This document shows positions 36,279 through 60,108 of a stretch of 64,000 bases of DNA, one piece after another. This stretch comes from Halorutilus salinus (GTDB lineage: Archaea > Halobacteriota > Halobacteria > Halobacteriales > Halorutilaceae), in contig NZ_RKLV01000002.1 of assembly GCF_026242195.1 (NCBI RefSeq), positions 186,001-250,000 on the forward strand, given 5' to 3'. Every line of letters begins with the position of its first letter. Within the stretch, counting starts at the first letter, position 1. The position numbers were made by a program, and so were the translations under genes. The notes below the pieces were generated by a model. The model saw only the letters and a list, made by a program, of their open reading frames with translations. It did not search any database and had not been told where the DNA came from.

Positions 36279-37169
36279 ATGCGCAGACCTTCGAGAGTAG
36301 CGACCTTTATAGACAAAGGAGGGACGGGGAAGACGACGGTCGCCGCACATCTCGGTGTCGCGCTCGCGGAGGCGGGCGAGGATGTCCTACTCGTCGACCT
36401 TGCGGGGAAGCAGGGCGACCTGAGCAAGCATTTCGGTCTCTGGGACGATGTGGAGGAGAGCATAGAGTCCGACGACGACTGGCCCAACATATCGACCGTA
36501 TTTCAGGACGAATGGGACATAATCGTCGAGAAGTTGGGCGAGGATGCCGTCGACGACCTGATACATGGAACCGACGAGGATATCGACGTCATACCCGCGC
36601 ATCCGGGTCTTGACTCGCTCGACGCCGAACTCGGCAACATCGACTCGCCGTCGGATCGTTATTCGCGTCTCGACGACTTCCTGACCGAGTACGTCGACCC
36701 TCTCGGCTACGATGTTGTCCTCGTCGACCTACCCGGGATTACAAACAACGTCACCTACAACGGTCTCTGGGCGGCGCGTAACGCCGTCGTCCCCGTTGAG
36801 GCGGGCGTCTTCGAGGCGAGTCAGCTTGAGGCGCTCGAACAGGATCTGGAGAAGATGGACGACAGCTTCGGCGTAACCGTCGACCTATCGATGGTCGTCC
36901 CCAACAAGATAGACCGACGTACGAAGCTCTCGAAGGAGTATCTGAAGGAGTTCCGCGACGCCTACCCCGACGTTCTCGGACGCCCTATACCCGTTTCACA
37001 GGAGATACGTAACGCCGCGAACGACGGACATACCGTCTTCGATGTAGACGAGCCTTCGAAGACCGGCGAACGCGCCTGCCGTCGTTTCGCCGAGAACGCC
37101 GAGGAGTTACGCGTACGTATCTCCGACGACGAACCGGTGCGACGTACGGAGGCGGTATCGGATGACTGA
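36279..37169 (+). CDS. ParA/MinD-type ATPase
   Basis: 296 residues. Deviant Walker A KGGTGKTT (about 14-21), switch DLAGKQGDLS, and the Walker B-like VVLVDLPGITNN. It is a ParA/Soj ATPase working on nucleoid or membrane. Its last codons overlap the next gene (ATGACTGA), a zinc-site protein, rather than a ParB. A helix-turn-helix ParB is not visible, so it is likely an orphan ParA that positions another cargo. Start ATG follows a short AT-rich leader. Confidence 0.85.
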   Translation: MRRPSRVATFIDKGGTGKTTVAAHLGVALAEAGEDVLLVDLAGKQGDLSKHFGLWDDVEESIESDDDWPNISTVFQDEWDIIVEKLGEDAVDDLIHGTDEDIDVIPAHPGLDSLDAELGNIDSPSDRYSRLDDFLTEYVDPLGYDVVLVDLPGITNNVTYNGLWAARNAVVPVEAGVFEASQLEALEQDLEKMDDSFGVTVDLSMVVPNKIDRRTKLSKEYLKEFRDAYPDVLGRPIPVSQEIRNAANDGHTVFDVDEPSKTGERACRRFAENAEELRVRISDDEPVRRTEAVSDD

Positions 37170-37838: not shown

Positions 37839-38779
37839 TGTTCCGCGTCACGTTCCTCGGAACCGGCGGTTCGATACCCCAGACGAACCGTGCGCCCAGC
37901 GCCGTCGCGGTTGAGCGCGAGGGCGATCTGATGCTTTTCGACTGCGGCGAGGGAACACAGCGCCAGATGATGAGGTGCGGCACGGGTTTCACAGTCGACG
38001 ATATCTTCATAACCCACAAACACGGCGACCATCTCCTCGGTCTACCGGGTCTGACACAGACATGGACGTTCCAAGGGCGTGACGAACCCGTACGTATCTA
38101 CTGCCCCGAATCCGTCGCCGATCATGTCCGCGGCTGTGTCGCTCTCGCAGGGCACCGTCCGGCGTACGACGTCGATGTCAAGCCCGTCGGTGACGGCACT
38201 GTCGTCCGCAGGGACGGCTACGATGTCGTCGCTTTCGAAACCGACCACGGACGCGTCGACTCGGTCGGATACGCCGTCGTCGAGGACGAACGCAAGGGAC
38301 GTTTCGACCGCGAACGCGCAGAGGAACTCGGCGTCCCTCCGGGACCCATGTTCTCGACACTACACAACGGCGAGGCGGTTGAACTCGAAGACGGGACGGT
38401 CGTCGAACCCGAACAGGTCGTCGGCGAACCACGCCCCGGCAGGAAGTTCGTCTACACGGGCGACACACGTCCGACCGACCGCACCGTCGAGATGGCACGC
38501 GACGCATCGTTGCTCGTCCACGACGGTATGTTCGGTGACGACAAGAAGGATCGCGCCGTCGAGACGGGACATTCGACCGCACGCGAGGCGGCGGGGGTGG
38601 CGCGCGAGGCGGACGCCGAACTCCTCGCACTGACCCACGTGAGTTCACGTTACTCCGACGACGTTTCGCCCCTCAAGGCGGCGTCGCTTGACGAGTTCGC
38701 GGACTCTTTCGTCGCCTCCGACGGCGACGAGGTCGTTGTCGAGTACCCGGAGAAGGAGAGGGGGACGCGGCGCGTCTAA
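37838..38779 (+). CDS. rnz: ribonuclease Z
   Basis: 313 residues. Metallo-beta-lactamase motifs: FLGTGGSIPQTNRAPS, LFDCGEGTQRQM, THKHGDHLLGLPG (HxHxDH), YTGDTRPT and LTHVSSRY. The long-form region with LAGHRPAY and the GPMFSTLHNGEAV insert matches archaeal RNase Z. It cleaves the 3' trailer of pre-tRNA. Starts within the stop of the preceding small gene. Followed by a 140-base space. Confidence 0.95.
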   Translation: MFRVTFLGTGGSIPQTNRAPSAVAVEREGDLMLFDCGEGTQRQMMRCGTGFTVDDIFITHKHGDHLLGLPGLTQTWTFQGRDEPVRIYCPESVADHVRGCVALAGHRPAYDVDVKPVGDGTVVRRDGYDVVAFETDHGRVDSVGYAVVEDERKGRFDRERAEELGVPPGPMFSTLHNGEAVELEDGTVVEPEQVVGEPRPGRKFVYTGDTRPTDRTVEMARDASLLVHDGMFGDDKKDRAVETGHSTAREAAGVAREADAELLALTHVSSRYSDDVSPLKAASLDEFADSFVASDGDEVVVEYPEKERGTRRV

Positions 38780-38920
38780 GCTGTTGCGTCTCCGGGAGCG
38801 AACGCCGACGCGTATACGAGGACAGAAAACTAAACCACCGAACTTTCCTGCGTCCTGTAAGATATCTGACACCTCTGAGAGCAAAAAACATTCGTGGTTA
38901 GGGGCTGAGCTTTAACCGGT

Positions 38921-39643
38921 ATGGACAGCCTGCTGACCGTACACCGACGTTACGGCTATCTGGCGGCTATCACCTCTGGGAACAGAGACAAGAGTGCCGT
39001 GGCGGAATACCTCGGCAAGTCCTCCTCAACGGTACGTAAGCATCTCGGCGAACTCGCTGATCTCGGCGTTGTCGAAGAGACCGACGACGGATACACGCTC
39101 ACGAAGTACGGCGAAGTCGTACGCGCGAACCTGAAGGACGCTGAGCTTGCTTACGAAGCTGAGGAGATAATCGAAGCCCTTGATGCGCCGGCGGAGGTTC
39201 TCTCCCAAGGAAGGTACGTGCCCTCGCGTAAACACGTACCGAACAGCACTATCGGGGAGATCGGTGAACATGTCAAGAACGCGGACACGGTGCGCGGTCT
39301 CGTACCCGTTCTCTTCCCGCCGTACCTCGGTACCTACCACGGACAGGTGCTCGACGGCTTGGACGCCGAGTTCGTTATGGAGCGTGAAGTCCTCGAACAC
39401 ATACGTGACGAACACGGAGATCTGATGGACGAGGCATCCCAGAACGGAACACGGTTCTTCGTCACGGATAGTAATCTGTCCCACGGGCTGGCTCTGCTAG
39501 ACGAACACCGTGTCGGCGTTCTGGTTTACGACGACGACGGGCATGTGCTGGGGCGCGCGTCGTTCGCGTCGCGGAGCGCGCGCGAGCATTTTGAAGCGAT
39601 GTACGAGGGGTGCAAGGAAAACGCTGAGCGGTTCGAACCGTAG
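38921..39643 (+). CDS. FilR1-type winged-helix transcriptional regulator
   Basis: 240 residues. N-terminal winged helix (KSAVAEYLGKSSSTVRKHL, LGVVEETDDGYTLTKYG), then a sensory domain (about 100-235) resembling the FilR1/DUF1724 type found in methanogens and haloarchaea, ending FASRSAREHFEAMYEG. It sits at the left edge of an AT-richer island and immediately upstream of two identical 16-bp dyads, so it is the likely local repressor or activator. A GCTTTAACC box lies just before the start. Confidence 0.75.
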   Translation: MDSLLTVHRRYGYLAAITSGNRDKSAVAEYLGKSSSTVRKHLGELADLGVVEETDDGYTLTKYGEVVRANLKDAELAYEAEEIIEALDAPAEVLSQGRYVPSRKHVPNSTIGEIGEHVKNADTVRGLVPVLFPPYLGTYHGQVLDGLDAEFVMEREVLEHIRDEHGDLMDEASQNGTRFFVTDSNLSHGLALLDEHRVGVLVYDDDGHVLGRASFASRSAREHFEAMYEGCKENAERFEP

Positions 39644-39649
39644 TTTCCG

Positions 39650-39694
39650 CGCCAAAGTTTTGGCGTACAAACCGTTCTCGCCAAAGTTTTGGCG
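39650..39694 (+). promoter_or_regulatory. two identical 16-bp dyads CGCCAAAGTTTTGGCG
   Basis: Copies at 39650-39665 and 39679-39694, identical, 29 bases apart (about three helical turns), each a 7-bp inverted repeat CGCCAAA/TTTGGCG around GT. They lie between the FilR1-type gene and the promoter of the 39756 operon, whose TATA box GGCTATATAATCC starts at 39721. Probably cooperative operator sites. A further half site (TTTCGCC) follows. Confidence 0.75.
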
Positions 39695-39755
39695 AAACCG
39701 GGGGTGTTTCGCCACGTCCATGGCTATATAATCCTGGGGTTAAGTTAGAGAAGAT

Positions 39756-40634
39756 ATGGTTGAGAAAGACCAACAAGGAGATAGCGTAGACAGAAGAACG
39801 GTACTTAAATCTGCGGGCGTTGCGGCTAGTGCGGTTACCGGTATGAGCGGAGTTGAAGTAGTGAGAGCAGACAACGATGATTTTTATCTTGGTGAGACCA
39901 CGCTGATAGAGACGGCTGTTGAACACAGAGGTGTAGATGAATATCGATATCCTGTGGGAGTAAACTGCCACGTAAGCCACGGTCACGTTATTGATAAGAA
40001 AAATAACAGGGTCACGCTTACAACTACTGGAACAGACGTGTTTGATGGGCGGGAAACAATTATGTCTTCTCCTGGAGGATACGAGAATACCCCGCGTGCT
40101 CGGCTGCTTGACTCAGAACCACGGAACGGTGTTGTTGTTGAGTCATACTGGTCAGGCACAGTAAAAAAGAGTCTGAAAACCGACCAGAAGGAAACTCCTG
40201 TAACACCTGAAGTCTCTGTAGAGGGAAGTAGAGCAACACTAAACACCGAACAGCACACTCTATCTGTTGGACCTGACGAAGAAAAAACCGTAGAATTAGG
40301 TACCCGTAGAGTCATGGCTAGAGCCAGAGGCGATTCAACCAGAACGATCGATGATCCATTCTCTGACGAAGGTACGATGAAAGTGATGGTCCCAGGAGAC
40401 GTAGAGGAAATTAAAATAGAGACTGTAATAAAGATGAGGAACCATGGTAGACTCTCCGTGTACGGTTCTTCTGACGCCAAGATATTTCCTATGGAATCAG
40501 ACAATCCGTATGCAAAGAACCGGGTTAGTTCCATACTGAATGTAGACCCTAATAAAGCACAGACTGCGTCCTCTGGTAATACGGAGTCTAAGACAGGTGA
40601 TTTATTAGTTGTTGCTGGAGGTGATAATGAATGA
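39756..40634 (+). CDS. Tat-exported protein coupled to a metalloprotease, unknown function
   Basis: 292 residues. N-terminal DRRTVLKSAGVAASAV is a twin-arginine signal (about residues 12-38). The rest is beta-rich with no motif I recognise; it ends GGDNE. Base composition and codon use (many AGA, ATA, AAT) are clearly more AT-rich than neighbours, a sign of transfer. TATA box 39721-39733 fits a start at 39756. The stop overlaps the protease ATG (ATGA), so the two are made together. It could be a chaperone, propeptide or Tat carrier for the protease. Confidence 0.7.
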   Translation: MVEKDQQGDSVDRRTVLKSAGVAASAVTGMSGVEVVRADNDDFYLGETTLIETAVEHRGVDEYRYPVGVNCHVSHGHVIDKKNNRVTLTTTGTDVFDGRETIMSSPGGYENTPRARLLDSEPRNGVVVESYWSGTVKKSLKTDQKETPVTPEVSVEGSRATLNTEQHTLSVGPDEEKTVELGTRRVMARARGDSTRTIDDPFSDEGTMKVMVPGDVEEIKIETVIKMRNHGRLSVYGSSDAKIFPMESDNPYAKNRVSSILNVDPNKAQTASSGNTESKTGDLLVVAGGDNE

Positions 40635-41305
40635 GCAACTACATAGCCATCCTTGGAACTCAGGCATTCCATGACCAGTGGAGTTCTTCTGACAGTAAGT
40701 TGGTGGATATAAGAGAATGGTGCGAAGACGTGTGGGCAAACGAAATAAGTCCCAACGGTAATTACGGGGCGAGCTTCGCGGACTGGTCTGAGGGAGCAAT
40801 TGCTGTTCCTGATAGTGCGTTTGAGGATGACAACATAGATGATTTGTCTATCAGGCGAGATAATGCTAATGACTGGTTAAGAGACTACTGGCAGTATTAT
40901 GACAATTATGTTGCTATAATAGTCATTGATGATTGGGGGCAGGATGATGATAAACTGGGTATTGCACTCAATAGTCAAGCAGGATCCTGTTGTAACAGAG
41001 CAGCTATCGTTGATGCGCGCGCAGACCGTAATGGGAATTTGCCATCCAATCTAGAAAATGTGGGTTCTGAAGGAATCGCGGCTCACGAACTTGTGCACCT
41101 GTATGGTGCACAACACACAGATGGGTCTACTCAGGACGGAGGATGGTTCAACCCTGATGAGGCAAGTATAATAGCTGTGCCTTCGGATCCGATTGGATGT
41201 GCAGATAATGGGAGTTTAGACGAAATAATAAGTTGGTATAGTGATTGTACGGTTAACGAGGTGCAAGATCATATAGACAGTGAAGATAGCATAGAACCAC
41301 TATAG
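40631..41305 (+). CDS. metzincin-like zinc metalloprotease without signal peptide
   Basis: 224 residues. HELVHLYGAQHTD (about 150-162) is the extended HExxHxxGxxH zinc motif of metzincins. Cys residues (EWCEDV, GSCCNRA, IGCADNG, SDCTVN) hint at disulfides, so an extracellular site. Yet the chain starts MSNYIAILGTQAFHDQW with no signal. Export on the Tat-signalled partner upstream (hitchhiking) is a possible explanation. AT-rich like the previous gene. No match to the classical halolysin (subtilisin) type. Confidence 0.75.
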   Translation: MSNYIAILGTQAFHDQWSSSDSKLVDIREWCEDVWANEISPNGNYGASFADWSEGAIAVPDSAFEDDNIDDLSIRRDNANDWLRDYWQYYDNYVAIIVIDDWGQDDDKLGIALNSQAGSCCNRAAIVDARADRNGNLPSNLENVGSEGIAAHELVHLYGAQHTDGSTQDGGWFNPDEASIIAVPSDPIGCADNGSLDEIISWYSDCTVNEVQDHIDSEDSIEPL

Positions 41306-41683
41306 ATGAAACGAAGAAAGTTCATCTCGGCGTCGGCGGTCTTTCTCGCCACGGGCTGTCTCGGGAACGACGAGAACCATGAACTGAGGGAGAGTGAGTT
41401 TGAACCTATAGATCTGGTACTGGATAACCCGGATAGGGAAAACACGACCGTGTCGGTTGAAATAACACAGGACGGTAGGACAGTATACTCTGATGAGTTA
41501 GAGGCTACGCGGGACGATAGCACGAGGGTGGAAAGCGTCATAGAAGAAGAGGGGGAGTATGTGGTGCGCGCCGAACTGAACGGGATGAGCGAAACCGAAA
41601 ACCTCCGTATTTCGAGTACGACTGCGGCAATTTACATACTCCCCGGTAACGAAACGATTGAAGTTACAGTTGGAGTAGAGTAA
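41306..41683 (+). CDS. small lipoprotein of the protease operon
   Basis: 125 residues. Signal KRRKFISASAVFLATGCLGN with lipobox Cys about 18. The remainder looks like a single beta-sandwich (alternating hydrophobics, TTVSVEITQDGRTVYSDELE). The ATG begins directly after the protease stop, so it belongs to the same operon. It might be an inhibitor or immunity factor, or a surface anchor for the protease. Family unknown. Confidence 0.7.
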   Translation: MKRRKFISASAVFLATGCLGNDENHELRESEFEPIDLVLDNPDRENTTVSVEITQDGRTVYSDELEATRDDSTRVESVIEEEGEYVVRAELNGMSETENLRISSTTAAIYILPGNETIEVTVGVE

Positions 41684-41700
41684 ACGGCGGCTAAACAGAA

Positions 41701-42630
41701 ATGATATCCAACTCACGGTTTCCGGAGTCTATACCCTACCTTCTTCTAACCCTCGGCGTTCTTTTTGGTCTATCGCCGCTTCTGAACCTCGGCGGAGTTA
41801 GCTTACTACCTCTATCCCCGTCCTACGTCACAGCGGGAGCCTTCGGTTGGCTCTACGTCCGAGGTATGGTCAGGCGAAACTCGTACGTGCTGGCGGTTCC
41901 GGCGGTGACATTTCTCATCCTCACAGGCATGTGGCTGTACTTTGAGCTTTCCAGCCCCTACTGTCTGAGCGCGGAAGGCGTCGTGTCGTACGGCAGTATA
42001 TCCCTCTTCTTCGTCCTTGGACAGACGGCGAAGAAGAAGGAGTGGGTCTACTTCGGTGCGTCGGGACTTGCTTACCTCGTATGTACGTATACCGTAGCTT
42101 CCGGTCTTCCCGGCGCGGGCTGGGGTGGAGTTAACCCTGTCTCGCTTGGTCTTACGCTCGTTCCTGTCCTTGTTCCGGGTATACCTATCGCTGTAGCAAC
42201 CTATCTTCTACTGCGCGGCGATCCGAGCAGGAAAGACCGCGTCTACCTCGGCACCGCGGTACTGGCTTACGCTGTCTGGGTAGTGGTCGGATCCGGTACT
42301 GTCCAGCTTGTACTTGACCCCCGGCCGGTGTTCCATCTACTTGTTCTCGTCCTTAGCTTAGGAATACCGCGCGCCGTGGTGCCCCGTCTTCTACCCGACG
42401 ACGCATCGAAGAGGGAGGAGCGGGCTTACCTCGGTGCCGCCGTGGTGGCTTACGCCCTCTGGATCCCTCTGTTTACCGTTGGCGTACTACCGCTGTTATA
42501 CTCATGGACAGGTGCTGTTGTACTCGCACTCACGCTCGGCGCGGGGATACCGCTCGGTGTAGTGGGGTACCTCGTACCGAACAACGGACGCCGACAACAA
42601 ACAGTCAGGGAACCGGGACATGGAAACTAA
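41701..42630 (+). CDS. multi-pass membrane protein, paralogue 1 of 3
   Basis: 309 residues, about nine to ten hydrophobic segments. N-terminal ESIPYLLLTLGVLFGLSPLL matches the starts of the next two proteins. About residues 40-85 (YVTAGAFGWLYVRGMVRR, then LAVPAVTFLILTGMWLYF) are nearly identical to paralogue 3. It looks like a repeated domain of 4 to 5 helices, here at least doubled. Starts 17 bases after the lipoprotein. Function unknown. Confidence 0.65.
   Translation: MISNSRFPESIPYLLLTLGVLFGLSPLLNLGGVSLLPLSPSYVTAGAFGWLYVRGMVRRNSYVLAVPAVTFLILTGMWLYFELSSPYCLSAEGVVSYGSISLFFVLGQTAKKKEWVYFGASGLAYLVCTYTVASGLPGAGWGGVNPVSLGLTLVPVLVPGIPIAVATYLLLRGDPSRKDRVYLGTAVLAYAVWVVVGSGTVQLVLDPRPVFHLLVLVLSLGIPRAVVPRLLPDDASKREERAYLGAAVVAYALWIPLFTVGVLPLLYSWTGAVVLALTLGAGIPLGVVGYLVPNNGRRQQTVREPGHGN
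41822..41942 (+). repeat. near-identical DNA segment shared with 43353-43479
   Basis: About 120 bases that match 43353-43479 closely: TACGTCACAGCGGGAGCCTT, CGTGCTGGCGGTTCCGGCGG and ATGTGGCTGTACTT all recur. The match is at the DNA level, including third positions, unlike the remaining diverged sequence of the two genes. Confidence 0.75.
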
Positions 42631-43222
42631 CCTTCGTATCACGGATCTCCTCCCGTATCTACTCATAGCCCTCGGCGTGCTACTCTACCTGTCGCCTTTA
42701 GCACCGTTGCCGCTGGACAAGACCGAGGACTTCCTCGTTCTCACAGCACCGCACTACGTGGTGGCAGGTCTTCTCACGCTGTTCGCCGCACGCGGTAGAG
42801 GCGACGTGCGTCTGCACATGGTAGCGGCTCCCGTAGTAGCCTTCGCCGCTTCGGCTGGTATGCTTCTGCTGAGTATGTTGCTCATACCTGAACCGCCCGC
42901 CGGTTTCGGTACTCCGCCGTACTGGCCGGAGGTCTTGGAAATCATCGCGTACTCGGTCGTCTCTCTAATCTTTTCGCTTGGGATAGCTATACGCGCACGG
43001 AAAGTAGGGTACGTAGGCATGATACTGTTGGTGTACGTGGGTGCCGTCCAGTTTGTCGCGGTACGTGTTCTTAACGGTGAGGGTGGTGCCAGTTTGGGGG
43101 AAGTCGCCGGTCTTTTTATAGCGACCGTGGTGCCTTTCGTCGCCGGTCTTCCGCTCGGAGTCGTCGGATATCTCCGGTACGGTAAATATGAACGAGCCAG
43201 CACGTCGAATACCGAAACATGA
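42620..43222 (+). CDS. multi-pass membrane protein, paralogue 2 of 3
   Basis: 200 residues, five or six hydrophobic segments. N-terminal TDLLPYLLIALGVLLYLSPL, then ALPLDK-type linker and HYVVAGLLTLFAARGRG, aligning with paralogues 1 and 3 but more diverged. It overlaps the preceding gene by 11 bases and the following by 4, so all three are coupled. No catalytic motif seen. Confidence 0.65.
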   Translation: METNLRITDLLPYLLIALGVLLYLSPLAPLPLDKTEDFLVLTAPHYVVAGLLTLFAARGRGDVRLHMVAAPVVAFAASAGMLLLSMLLIPEPPAGFGTPPYWPEVLEIIAYSVVSLIFSLGIAIRARKVGYVGMILLVYVGAVQFVAVRVLNGEGGASLGEVAGLFIATVVPFVAGLPLGVVGYLRYGKYERASTSNTET

Positions 43223-43758
43223 ACCTCGACTCTCGTATCTCAGCTATTCTCCCGTACCCGCTCCTGCTTATAGGAATCCTGCTCTACGTATCCCCGTTCG
43301 TACCTGTTCTGAACCACTACGATGCTTCCTACGATCTGGTATTCGTGGCTCCCTCTTACGTCACAGCGGGAGCCTTCGGTTGGCTGTATATGCGAGGGAA
43401 GATAGAGAAAGACTCATACGTGCTGGCGGTTCCGGCGGTGACCTTTCTCCTTCTCACAGGTATGTGGCTGTACTTCGACTTCCCCGGACCGTACGCGGTA
43501 ACCGCGCGTTTCGTCTTCGGGTTCGGCTCTCTCTCCTTCCTGTACGTTACAGGACACGTAGCGGGGGTCGGAGACCGGATTTACGCCGCCGCCTCCGTGG
43601 TGGCTTACGCAGTCTGCCTTTCTGTGGTGGTCGTACTTCCCCCGTTCGACCCATGGATGTTTCTTTCGCTGTTTCTCGTATCCGTGGTCACGCTAGTTTC
43701 GGGGGTTCCGCTTGCGTTGGTAGGCTACGTCCTATCCGGCGTATCAACAGGTTCCTGA
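43219..43758 (+). CDS. multi-pass membrane protein, paralogue 3 of 3
   Basis: 179 residues, five or so hydrophobic segments. Starts within the stop of paralogue 2 (ATGA). Shares with paralogue 1 the core YVTAGAFGWLY...SYVLAVPAVTFLLLTGMWLYF, with near-identical DNA, showing a recent duplication or gene conversion. It ends 27 bases before the convergent deacylase. Function unknown. Confidence 0.65.
   Translation: MNLDSRISAILPYPLLLIGILLYVSPFVPVLNHYDASYDLVFVAPSYVTAGAFGWLYMRGKIEKDSYVLAVPAVTFLLLTGMWLYFDFPGPYAVTARFVFGFGSLSFLYVTGHVAGVGDRIYAAASVVAYAVCLSVVVVLPPFDPWMFLSLFLVSVVTLVSGVPLALVGYVLSGVSTGS
43353..43479 (+). repeat. near-identical DNA segment shared with 41822-41942
   Basis: Second copy, in paralogue 3. 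Because synonymous sites are also mostly the same over about 120 bases, gene conversion or a very recent duplication of this segment is likely. Confidence 0.75.
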
Positions 43759-43785
43759 TGAGGCGGGAGGTTCGGATCTTCTAAT

Positions 43786-44748
43786 TCAGAACCGCTCCAA
43801 CCCCGTCGCAACGCTCATCACGTACTCACCCGTCGCAACCATCGGTAGTCTACGCGTCCGCCAGACGACACCGTTCACCGAAGAGTCGACCGTCTCCTTC
43901 GTCTCGCCGAAGACGTCGGTGACCTCGAAGAGAGCGTCCCCCTTGCCGACCTCGTCGTACAGATCGGCGTGTCTTTCAACCAGACCACCGCTGTCGGCGT
44001 GGAAGACTTCGAACTCCTTTGCGCGGAGCTGTTCGTCCGGCGTCGTGGGTTCGCCTTCGAGGAATCCGTACCCCTTGAGGACGTTGAAGACACCGCGTAC
44101 ACCCGTCTCTACTGACCCTCTGTCCCATCCGACGGCACCGCCGAGTTCGGGGTCGACGAGAGGGACGCCGTCTTCGGGTGCGGCGCGCGCCAACTGCCCC
44201 TTGGGACCCTTCTTGTCGAGGACGTACTCCGTCCCGAAGGTACGTGCGAGTTCGAGGCATTCGTCGTGGAGACGGTGACCACGTCCGCAACGGACGCGTA
44301 CCTCGTCTATCATACGGCTTGTCGAACCCTGATGGAGATCCAGACCGAGGTCGGCGCGCTCTGCACCGTTCTCGTAGACGAGGTTGGCGAGACGTTCGCT
44401 ACTCGAACCGTCGGCGTCACCCGGAAACGCACGGTTGAGCTTGGTGCTATCGACGGGGTTCTTGTGCTCCGCCATCTGAAAGCCGTGGTAGTTTAGGACG
44501 CCGACGACGAGTATCTGTCCCGTGAGTTCGTCGGCGTCGAGACGCCGGGTTACCTCGCGCACGACACCGACGCCGTTTAGCTCGTCGCCGTCGCTTCCCG
44601 CCTGTACGTAGAGCGTTTCGCCTTCCTCAGCACCGTTTACGACCGCAACCGGAAGACCGAAGCCGGAGCCGTCGCGCGTCTCTCCGGCGGTTAGTATCCC
44701 CGTGTCGATCTCACCCGGTGCGGCTCGCGCAGACCCGAACTCAGCCAT
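43786..44748 (-). CDS. succinylglutamate desuccinylase/aspartoacylase-family deacylase
   Basis: 320 residues, M14-type zinc peptidase-like deacylase. AGSDGDELNGVGVVREV stands at the first metal motif. The usual HGxE His is Asp here, as I recall for haloarchaeal members. NYHGFQMAEHKNPVDSTKLN, LDLHQGSTSRMIDEVRVRCG (the second metal His) and a C-terminal beta domain (KTVDSSVNGVVWRTR-type) follow. It would deacylate an N-acyl amino acid. Divergent from crtD with 79 bases between. Confidence 0.8.
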   Translation of the reverse strand: MAEFGSARAAPGEIDTGILTAGETRDGSGFGLPVAVVNGAEEGETLYVQAGSDGDELNGVGVVREVTRRLDADELTGQILVVGVLNYHGFQMAEHKNPVDSTKLNRAFPGDADGSSSERLANLVYENGAERADLGLDLHQGSTSRMIDEVRVRCGRGHRLHDECLELARTFGTEYVLDKKGPKGQLARAAPEDGVPLVDPELGGAVGWDRGSVETGVRGVFNVLKGYGFLEGEPTTPDEQLRAKEFEVFHADSGGLVERHADLYDEVGKGDALFEVTDVFGETKETVDSSVNGVVWRTRRLPMVATGEYVMSVATGLERF

Positions 44749-58543: not shown

Positions 58544-59386
58544 ATGGAAGCCATAACACTACTGCTCTGGACGGCGATAGCCCTGTTCCTTCTCGGAGCC
58601 GTCTACGAGGATCGCGCATACGTCCTCTCCGCCGCGGGCTGGGTGTTCTTCGGCGCGTTCTGGTTCGTCCGTATACCTATCTACCTCGGAACCAACAGCT
58701 GGATAAAGGTTATACTCGCCGTCGTCGCACTTCCGCTATCCGTATACGTCGGCTACCGTCTGGTTAACGAGGAACGCGACACGGTTCTCAAGCTGAGCCA
58801 AGCCGTCGCCGCCATGGGGATCATCTACCTACCGTTCGGTCTCATAGGCGCTCTCAACACCGCCCTTATCGAACACACGGCGGCGCAGACGAACCGTATA
58901 ATGTCGGTTCTCGGCGTCAACGCACAGCTCATAACCGGCGACGGTGTACGTAACATCTTCGCCGTCACCAACCCCGCGACAGGGGAGGAGTACAGGACGC
59001 ATATCATACTCGCGTGTACGGGTATCGGTAGCATGGCTATCTTTGCGGGGCTAATCTCCGTGATACGCGCACCGTTCCGTAGGAAGACGATGGCGTTCGC
59101 CGTCTCCGTACCCGTCATATACGCCCTCAACCTCGGACGTAACGTGTTCATAGCGACGGCGTACGGATACCAGTGGTTCCCGTACGGCGAGGGTTTCATC
59201 GCGTCCGTCACGGGTAAGTTCGACGCGTACGCGAGCTTCTTCTGGGCTGACAAGGTTATATCCCAGGGCTTGAGTGTAATCGTCCTCGTCGGTATACTGC
59301 TCGCTGTCATCCGTTTCCTCCCCGAACTCACACATCTTCTTGACGAGGTGCTTGAACTCCTCGGCATCAAGAATAAGACTGCATGA
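58544..59386 (+). CDS. artA: archaeosortase A
   Basis: 280 residues with about eight helices. The exosortase/archaeosortase core shows the catalytic Cys in IILACTGIGSMAIF (Cys 158) and Arg 199 in YALNLGRNVFIATAYG. Full length for the family. It cleaves the PGF-CTERM signal at the cell surface and attaches the protein to a lipid. A substrate candidate is the 13865 propeller protein. The stop overlaps the metallophosphoesterase start by 4 bases. Confidence 0.92.
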   Translation: MEAITLLLWTAIALFLLGAVYEDRAYVLSAAGWVFFGAFWFVRIPIYLGTNSWIKVILAVVALPLSVYVGYRLVNEERDTVLKLSQAVAAMGIIYLPFGLIGALNTALIEHTAAQTNRIMSVLGVNAQLITGDGVRNIFAVTNPATGEEYRTHIILACTGIGSMAIFAGLISVIRAPFRRKTMAFAVSVPVIYALNLGRNVFIATAYGYQWFPYGEGFIASVTGKFDAYASFFWADKVISQGLSVIVLVGILLAVIRFLPELTHLLDEVLELLGIKNKTA

Positions 59387-60108
59387 TCGAGGGTGACGAG
59401 GGGTCAGAGACACCCGCGGGTGGGTTCGAAGACCTAAGCTTCGGCGCGGGTGCGGTCTACGTTCCTGAGGAGGACGTCGCCTCCGTCAGCGATCTGCACG
59501 TCGGTCTTGCCGATGCCGCGAGACGTGACGGGACTGCGTTACCCTTCGACGAGGAGACGGCGCTTGAAGAAGCCGTACGCGACGTACTGACCCGTTCCGA
59601 GCCTTCGACACTTGTTTTCGACGGCGACGTACAGCACTCGTTCGGGGGTATCGGTGACGCGGGCGACACCGTCCGGCGTCTGGAGCGCGTTACTGAGACG
59701 TACGGAGCCGAACCCGTCTTCGTTGAAGGCAACCACGACACCGATCTTGACGCCGTTGTTGAGACGGAGGCTTGGCACGAGGAAGGCGACGTCGTCTTCG
59801 TCCACGGCGACACGGTTCCCGCGAACCTTCCCGACGCGTCCCTGTACGTCGTCGGACACGACCATCCGACGGTCGAGATAGAGGGTCAGAAGCAGTCCTG
59901 TTTCCTGCACGGACCTTACGAGGACGCGGCGGTAGTCATGACTCCCGCGCTCAACCCTCTGTGTGAGGGCGTCGTAGTCAACGAGATGCGCGCATACGAC
60001 TTCATGTCACCGTTCGTACGCGACTTCGACCGTTTCCGTGTCGCGGTCGAAACCCGAGACGAGGCTCTGCGTTTCCCGCCGATCGACGACTTCCGGCGTA
60101 TGCTTTGA
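59383..60108 (+). CDS. calcineurin-like metallophosphoesterase
   Basis: 241 residues. SDLHVGLADAA, VFDGDVQHS, VEGNHDTDLD and VVGHDHPTVE supply the metal ligands of the two-metal phosphoesterase site. Archaeal members of this size are YfcE-like or nuclease-like. It overlaps artA by 4 bases, so pssD-artA-phosphoesterase may be one operon. The last codons abut a mobile element end: the TGA stop is shared with the element's terminal GGGTCAA on the minus strand. Confidence 0.85.
   Translation: MIEGDEGSETPAGGFEDLSFGAGAVYVPEEDVASVSDLHVGLADAARRDGTALPFDEETALEEAVRDVLTRSEPSTLVFDGDVQHSFGGIGDAGDTVRRLERVTETYGAEPVFVEGNHDTDLDAVVETEAWHEEGDVVFVHGDTVPANLPDASLYVVGHDHPTVEIEGQKQSCFLHGPYEDAAVVMTPALNPLCEGVVVNEMRAYDFMSPFVRDFDRFRVAVETRDEALRFPPIDDFRRML

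What the first reader, a model, noticed from the sequence alone, without database searches (positions are those of the whole stretch)
38921..43758. AT-rich island with a regulator, twin dyads, a Tat protein coupled to a signal-less metzincin, a lipoprotein and three membrane paralogues
The metalloprotease (HELVHLYGAQHT) has several Cys and no signal. The upstream gene has a Tat signal and overlaps it by ATGA, which suggests a co-exported pair (Tat hitchhiker, inhibitor or propeptide). A small lipoprotein and three coupled membrane proteins follow, and twin identical 16-bp dyads sit at the promoter. Base composition and codon use differ from neighbours. This could be a secreted toxin/protease with immunity or anchoring proteins.
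Basis: partly seen in the sequence, partly recalled or inferred. Interest (0 to 1): 0.75.

Follow-up and report, generated by a model that had tools for sequence, protein, structure and literature searches.

The report
Two-gene Tat-exported haloarchaeal metalloprotease
In salt-loving archaea, a zinc protease that lacks its own export tag is made from a gene tightly coupled to a partner that carries the tag, and relatives with the two genes fused, or with a tag on the protease itself, suggest that the partner carries the protease out of the cell.

Summary
A 5.04-kb AT-rich island (38758-43801), absent at the same site in a congener, holds a FilR1-type regulator, twin 16-bp dyads, a Tat-signal protein (T), a signal-less metzincin-like protein (M) overlapping it by 4 nt, a lipoprotein and three membrane paralogues. 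The T-M pair recurs: nine distinct intact type-1 pairs in diverse haloarchaea, T always directly upstream of M. In two further lineages T and M are one polypeptide (one confirmed in a second plasmid record). In five relatives M carries its own Tat signal and the genome has no detectable T. No close, intact type-1 M lacked a Tat signal in cis or in the adjacent gene. The T family also pairs with a second HExxH family. Best explanation: T and M form a cytoplasmic complex exported together by Tat, as Streptomyces MelC1/MelC2 are, and M is a secreted or surface protease. Complex, export and proteolysis are inferred, not shown. The window's M keeps the zinc motif but has Ile at the Met-turn. The lipoprotein and FilR1 regulators recur near pairs above chance; the membrane paralogues were found nowhere else. 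Toxin/immunity has no direct support. All relatives with records are annotated 'hypothetical protein'.

The parts
38758..43801 (.). Inserted AT-rich island (approximate edges)
   Evidence: In congener G385 the flanking sequences are contiguous with only 35 bp between them (L185 4074/4109). Also absent between the same genes in G287. No integrase, tRNA, or shared repeat of 7 bp or more between the two end stretches.
38921..39643 (+). FilR1-type winged-helix transcriptional regulator
   Evidence: Pfam FilR1_middle 80 bits (cut-off 27) and HVO_A0261_N 47 bits (cut-off 35). Same family near pairs in L011, L012, L015 and L082.
39650..39665 (.). Dyad 1 CGCCAAAGTTTTGGCG, putative operator
   Evidence: matched by CGCCAAGATTTTGGCG in the decayed paralogous locus L119.
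39679..39694 (.). Dyad 2, identical copy 29 bp on
   Evidence: in the paralogous locus it reads CGGCAAAGCTTTGCCG, changed symmetrically in both arms.
39723..39730 (+). TATA-box-like element about 30 bp before the Tat gene start (leaderless-type promoter)
   Evidence: sequence, (GGCTATATAATCC); inference.
39756..40634 (+). T: Tat-signal partner/escort protein, 292 aa
   Evidence: RRTVLKSAG twin-arginine signal. No Pfam domain beyond a sub-threshold TAT_signal. Homologues always directly upstream of a signal-less metallopeptidase.
40610..40634 (+). Translation-coupling junction: GGAGGTGAT Shine-Dalgarno plus ATGA overlap
   Evidence: sequence. Similar GGAGGTG-type motifs at several other pair junctions.
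40631..41305 (+). M: signal-less metzincin-like metallopeptidase, 224 aa, HELVHLYGAQH zinc motif, 5 Cys
   Evidence: Reprolysin_5 E 5.6e-4, below its cut-off. 15-member family alignment A3 with invariant W35, D100, C190 and nearly invariant C206.
41306..41683 (+). Small Tat-type lipoprotein (RRKFISASAVFLATGC lipobox), 125 aa
   Evidence: Homologous to lipoproteins beside M in L011, L085, L109 and L013 (leave-one-out E 2e-11 to 2e-5), weakly L074.
41701..42630 (+). Membrane protein 1, paralogue
   Evidence: no homologue in 20 other genomes or in plasmids.
42620..43222 (+). Membrane protein 2, paralogue
43219..43758 (+). Membrane protein 3, paralogue

Best explanation
The core is a two-gene secreted-protease system. 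The upstream gene makes T, a soluble partner with a Tat signal. The downstream gene makes M, a metzincin-like zinc peptidase without any signal, and its translation is coupled to T's. T and M fold and bind in the cytoplasm and the complex leaves through the Tat translocon on T's signal (hitchhiking). Outside, M is released or held near the surface and cleaves an unknown substrate. The FilR1-type regulator probably controls the promoter through the twin dyads, and the lipoprotein acts at the cell surface with M. Shown: gene order, coupling, signals, recurrence, natural fusion, complementary own-Tat forms, empty site. Inferred: physical complex, export, proteolysis, operator function.
For: T is always directly upstream of M in type-1 pairs (W, L011, L014/L015, L019, L073, L074, L076, L108 and L192 intact; L012 and L013 damaged; gap or overlap of 10 nt or less). 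Searching with T alone over 394 genomes finds the same loci; its full-length hits all lie beside a metallopeptidase gene, apart from one weak partial hit (G391) whose context was not examined. T and M are one polypeptide in L078 and L079; L078 is matched at 100% over 441 aa by an annotated single CDS in Haloarcula sp. CBA1115, and its sister L076 has two genes. Five relatives (L016, L017, L018, L071, L072) carry a Tat signal on M itself, and their five genomes gave no T hit. The C-terminal Cys pair is conserved in nearly all members, including the fusions and own-Tat forms, fitting an exported, disulphide-bonded domain. T is also paired with a second HExxH family in L080-L083 and L126, with homologous mature T domains (E 5e-11 to 7e-3; hhalign 97%).
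Against: No experiment or complex model. AlphaFold models from 2-sequence alignments are poor (pLDDT 46 and 30), so the fold is unproven. The window's M has Ile in place of the Met-turn Met. L014/L015 (first zinc His lost) and three own-Tat relatives (HExxH lost) look catalytically dead, so the family is not uniformly a protease. One type-2 protein (L144) has no Tat partner, and the distant L109 protein has a Tat protein downstream rather than upstream. T is far larger than an escort needs.
Confidence: 0.72

Rival explanations
1. T is mainly a trans-acting propeptide or inhibitor: the locus is a split zymogen, and T keeps M latent until it is outside; export with T is a by-product.
For: In the fusions the order is signal, T domain, catalytic domain, the classic secreted-zymogen layout. 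T is 220-290 aa, larger than a signal carrier needs. The same T family serves two different peptidase families.
Against: Own-Tat forms with an intact zinc motif (L016, L017) have no T domain and no T gene detected in the genome, so the fold and activity of the family do not require it. Not exclusive of co-export.
Confidence: 0.45
2. A secreted antagonistic protease (halocin-like) with the lipoprotein and/or membrane proteins as self-protection.
For: Patchy distribution (about 5% of 394 genomes), plasmid locations, recent transfer (identical 4.3 kb in genomes of two families), neighbouring membrane proteins or lipoproteins, inactivated copies.
Against: No immunity gene is shared by all loci; membrane proteins following different pairs are not detectably related; the lipoprotein family is common elsewhere (51 of 98 genomes); no PADLOC match for T, M, lipoprotein or membrane proteins. 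No activity data.
Confidence: 0.2
3. A nutritional or envelope-remodelling secreted protease induced through FilR1-type control.
For: Haloarchaea secrete other proteases by Tat (general knowledge). A paralogous operator-regulator locus in the same genome precedes a Tat-signal remnant resembling a trypsin-like protein, from inspection only. An S8 peptidase gene lies next to the L078 fusion.
Against: Dead homologues are kept with the same architecture, which fits poorly with simple digestion.
Confidence: 0.4
4. M is a cytosolic protease and the operon partner T is exported independently.
For: M has no signal peptide; no protein-level data.
Against: Fusions, own-Tat relatives and the conserved Cys pair all point to export.
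Confidence: 0.08

Closest known systems
Streptomyces MelC1/MelC2 tyrosinase operon (PMC2758597)
   Same: Bicistronic operon; upstream gene makes a Tat-signal helper, downstream enzyme lacks a signal; the enzyme hitchhikes through Tat on the helper and is inactive without it.
   Different: MelC2 is a copper tyrosinase, not a peptidase; bacterial; T has no known relation to MelC1, and fused forms exist here.
E. coli PaoABC, three-component Tat hitchhiker (PMC4273604)
   Same: Folded multi-subunit complex exported on one subunit's Tat signal (abstract).
   Different: Molybdenum oxidoreductase; no zymogen-like fusion or signal swap shown here.
Reprolysin/adamalysin-type metzincins (Pfam Reprolysin_5; ADAM17, PDB 1bkc; PDB 4on1 metalloprotease II)
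   Same: HExxHxxGxxH zinc motif followed by a Met-turn region; marginal profile matches (Pfam E 4.8e-6 best member, PDB E 0.043-0.066).
   Different: Below the Pfam cut-off for the window protein; signal on a separate protein; Met-turn Met replaced in the window member.
Single-chain secreted zymogens such as haloarchaeal halolysins (general knowledge)
   Same: Tat signal, accessory domain and catalytic domain, the layout of the L078/L079 fusions.
   Different: Serine protease versus metallopeptidase; here the two halves are usually separate genes.

Membership tests
Tat hitchhiker complex | Partner carries a twin-arginine signal | tested here: met
   RR conserved in all ten aligned T sequences, including the two fusions. 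The Pfam TAT_signal score is below its cut-off in the window.
Tat hitchhiker complex | Cargo lacks its own signal | tested here: met
   Paired M sequences begin directly at the domain (L011 has a short extension without a signal); own-Tat relatives align with an extra N-terminal signal.
Tat hitchhiker complex | Genes are coupled and conserved as a pair | tested here: met
   9 intact pairs, 2 damaged, 2 fused lineages.
Tat hitchhiker complex | Partner and cargo bind each other | not testable with these tools
   Natural fusion is indirect evidence; single-chain models poor.
Tat hitchhiker complex | Cargo export depends on the partner's signal | not testable with these tools
   Needs secretion assays.
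Metzincin metallopeptidases | HExxHxxGxxH/D zinc motif | tested here: met
   HELVHLYGAQH in the window.
Metzincin metallopeptidases | Met-turn methionine | tested here: not met
   Ile in the window protein (SIIAV); Met in L011, L013, L016, L017, L019, L073, L074, L076, L079. The window protein is therefore called metzincin-like.
Metzincin metallopeptidases | Metzincin fold | tested here: inconclusive
   Model pLDDT 46; Foldseek lists some reprolysins but nothing significant.
Metzincin metallopeptidases | Above a curated family cut-off | tested here: not met
   Reprolysin_5 20.6 bits against 27.
FilR1 / HVO_A0261-type regulators | FilR1_middle and HVO_A0261_N domains above cut-off | tested here: met
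   80.2 and 46.9 bits.
Toxin-immunity (halocin) systems | Growth inhibition and self-protection | not testable with these tools
   Needs bioassay.

The most novel reading that the evidence does not exclude
Haloarchaea have a dedicated, modular Tat escort family (T) that carries at least two sequence-unrelated classes of signal-less zinc peptidase out of the cell, spread as mobile, regulated cassettes with accessory surface proteins, and repeatedly interconverted with single-chain (fused) and own-signal forms.
Probability: 0.45. Interest if true: 0.75.

Novelty: new variant of a known kind. Interest (0 to 1): 0.62.

Why it matters
Tat hitchhiking is known for bacterial redox and copper enzymes. 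Papers found here did not describe it for a protease or for archaea (within an open-access library). If right, it names the export route of protein families now annotated as hypothetical, shows natural swaps between signal in trans, fused signal and signal in cis, and gives a small, testable system for how archaeal Tat recognises folded complexes. It also warns that secretome predictions from signal peptides alone miss such proteins.

Tried and rejected
No complex model was attempted: the sequences allowed for folding do not include a natural fusion. Virus or phage origin: none found in viral contigs with three alignments, in phage records, or in PHROGs. Defence system: PADLOC matches only the generic HTH of the regulator. 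RNA or tRNA elements: none. Membrane paralogues as a conserved part: rejected, no homologues beside other pairs, in 20 other genomes or in plasmids. First A2 hits with only the Tat signal matched (about 15 genomes) were set aside as not T. Homology of type-1 and type-2 peptidases: not detectable. A mirror-tree correlation of T and M (Spearman 0.53, Mantel p 0.002) was not used as evidence of binding because linked genes share history. Its summary said 'no intact type-1 M lacked a Tat signal'; this is now limited to close family members, because the distant L109 protein has its Tat protein downstream.

Full report
Observation. The seven genes, the overlaps, the Tat signal, the missing signal on the protease and the twin dyads are all as described. 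The window lies in a 2.1-Mb haloarchaeal assembly (G000:C10). GC falls to 45-51% in the core, and GC3 of the T-M pair is 0.38-0.39 against 0.73-0.76 in two flanking genes. In a congener (G385) the sequences on either side of the island are contiguous, with 35 bp between them, and the same genes are neighbours in a second genus of the family. The island is therefore an insertion of about 5.04 kb. No integrase or tRNA was seen, and no shared repeat of 7 bp or more between the two end stretches.

The pair is conserved. Searching the protease (M) over 394 genomes of the class finds relatives in about 5%. Wherever a close, intact M lacks a signal, a homologous Tat protein (T) lies directly upstream. 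Intact type-1 pairs: window, L011 (Halopiger xanaduensis plasmid), L014/L015, L019 (Natronosalvus caseinilyticus plasmid), L073, L074, L076, L108, and L192 (Haladaptatus sp. DYSN1 plasmid). Two more are damaged: an in-frame TAG in M of Halobiforma haloterrestris (L012/L084), and a split T frame in Halorubrum hochsteinianum (L013). Junctions range from a 10-nt overlap to a 1-nt gap, several with a Shine-Dalgarno motif inside the end of T. The independent search with T alone returns the same loci.

Fusions and swaps. In L078 (441 aa) and L079 (478 aa) a single frame encodes Tat signal, T domain and M domain. L078 is not an assembly slip: the identical 441-aa frame is one annotated CDS in Haloarcula sp. 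CBA1115, although the same genome also holds a broken second copy (L077). Its closest relative L076 has two genes, with branch support 96/90. The N-terminal part of L078 matches the T profile weakly (E 3e-4), and L076's T matches that of L078 strongly. The T assignment of L079's N-terminus rests on position and a shared RR signal more than on sequence score. Conversely, L016, L017, L018, L071 and L072 carry a Tat signal directly before M, and their genomes gave no T match. L016 and L017 keep the zinc motif; L018, L071 and L072 have lost it. The tree is poorly resolved and does not order these events.

A second peptidase uses the same partner. T homologues in L080-L083 and L126 are directly followed by another signal-less family, 234-245 aa where intact, with HExxH, a TPM element and often a C-terminal SxCT. 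L126 carries an in-frame stop in the peptidase, and L125 looks like a further, damaged example. The mature T domains are homologous between types (hmmsearch E 5e-11, 3e-8, 2e-7 and 2e-6 for L081, L082, L080 and L083, weaker for L126; reversed controls 0.5 or worse; hhalign 97%), while the peptidases themselves are not detectably related. One further type-2 gene (L127) follows a different, PQQ-repeat protein by 5 nt; its frame seems to begin with a Tat-like stretch, but the start codon is unclear. Exceptions: L144 has no Tat partner upstream, and L109, a distant type-1 hit, has a Tat protein downstream instead.

What the protease is. M is metzincin-like: HELVHLYGAQH in the window, best family member Reprolysin_5 E 4.8e-6, and marginal PDB matches to metalloprotease II (4on1) and ADAM17. 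The window copy fails the Met-turn test (Ile), and its Pfam score is below the cut-off, so it is not filed as a metzincin. Two Cys in the C-terminal part are conserved almost throughout, which suits an exported, disulphide-bonded protein. L014/L015 and three own-Tat relatives have lost zinc ligands, so some copies may be non-enzymatic or decaying.

Regulation and accessories. The regulator has both FilR1_middle and HVO_A0261_N domains, and such regulators lie near L011, L012, L015 and L082; a rough binomial estimate gives p about 1e-5 to 7e-4 for four of eleven type-1 loci. The dyads recur once in the genome, at a decayed locus on contig C15, after a frameshifted paralogous regulator: the first dyad differs by one pair of letters, the second (CGGCAAAGCTTTGCCG) has changed symmetrically in both arms, and the spacer TACAAACCGTT and the TATA region are kept. 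That supports a real operator, bound by this regulator family, but binding is untested. The lipoprotein family lies beside M in five loci by sequence score (window, L011, L013, L085, L109) and weakly in L074. It occurs in 51 of 98 genomes at one to three copies, so repeated adjacency is unlikely by chance (rough p 8e-11; the estimate treats loci as independent). The membrane paralogues have no relatives among proteins after other pairs, in 20 other genomes or in plasmids.

Mechanism. The arrangement is that of Streptomyces MelC1/MelC2, where a Tat-signal helper carries a signal-less enzyme out (PMC2758597). Fusion and signal swapping are what a co-export partner predicts. Active own-Tat forms without T argue that T is not an absolute requirement for folding or control, but T is large and conserved enough (RNHGxxxVFG and P motifs) that a second role as latch or chaperone is likely. 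Binding, export and proteolysis remain inferences.

Limits. The genome sample is about 394 of a larger class. Start codons were chosen by eye. The gene-calling script is heuristic. Adjacency p-values assume independence. The paper library is open-access only, so absence of a report is weak evidence. All relatives seen in annotated records are called hypothetical protein.

Noticed in passing
G000 contig C15 about 59,000-60,000 (L119 2966-4021, minus strand): A decayed paralogous locus: frameshifted FilR1 regulator, the same twin-dyad promoter, and a truncated Tat-signal frame whose start resembles a Tat-exported trypsin-like protein in L085 (3275-4417), judged by eye.
   Followed up: partly
L014 and L015: 4,311 bp including T, M, a lipoprotein and a transposase gene are 100% identical in genomes of two families (G228, G371), so very recent transfer or cross-contamination of an assembly.
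   Followed up: partly
L129, L131 and about 30 similar hits: A widespread HExxH protein of about 320-350 aa, with its own Tat signal in L131, next to a 2'-5' RNA ligase-like gene in the two loci read; distantly similar to the type-2 peptidases.
   Followed up: no
window 36279-37169 and L085 6217-6696: A ParA-like ATPase lies about 1.8 kb before the island, and a similar one lies beside the lipoprotein and decayed M gene of a Halomarina plasmid; in the window it lies outside the island.
   Followed up: no
window 41701-43758: Membrane paralogues 1 and 3 share near-identical DNA stretches (for example GTCACAGCGGGAGCCTTCGGTTGGCT), suggesting recent duplication or gene conversion.
   Followed up: no
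L127 246-2178: A signal-less type-2 peptidase follows a PQQ-repeat protein by 5 nt, a possible second kind of partner.
   Followed up: partly
L018, L071, L072: A supported clade of own-Tat relatives that have all lost the HExxH motif but keep the Cys pair and an intact frame, possibly pseudoenzymes with a new role.
   Followed up: no
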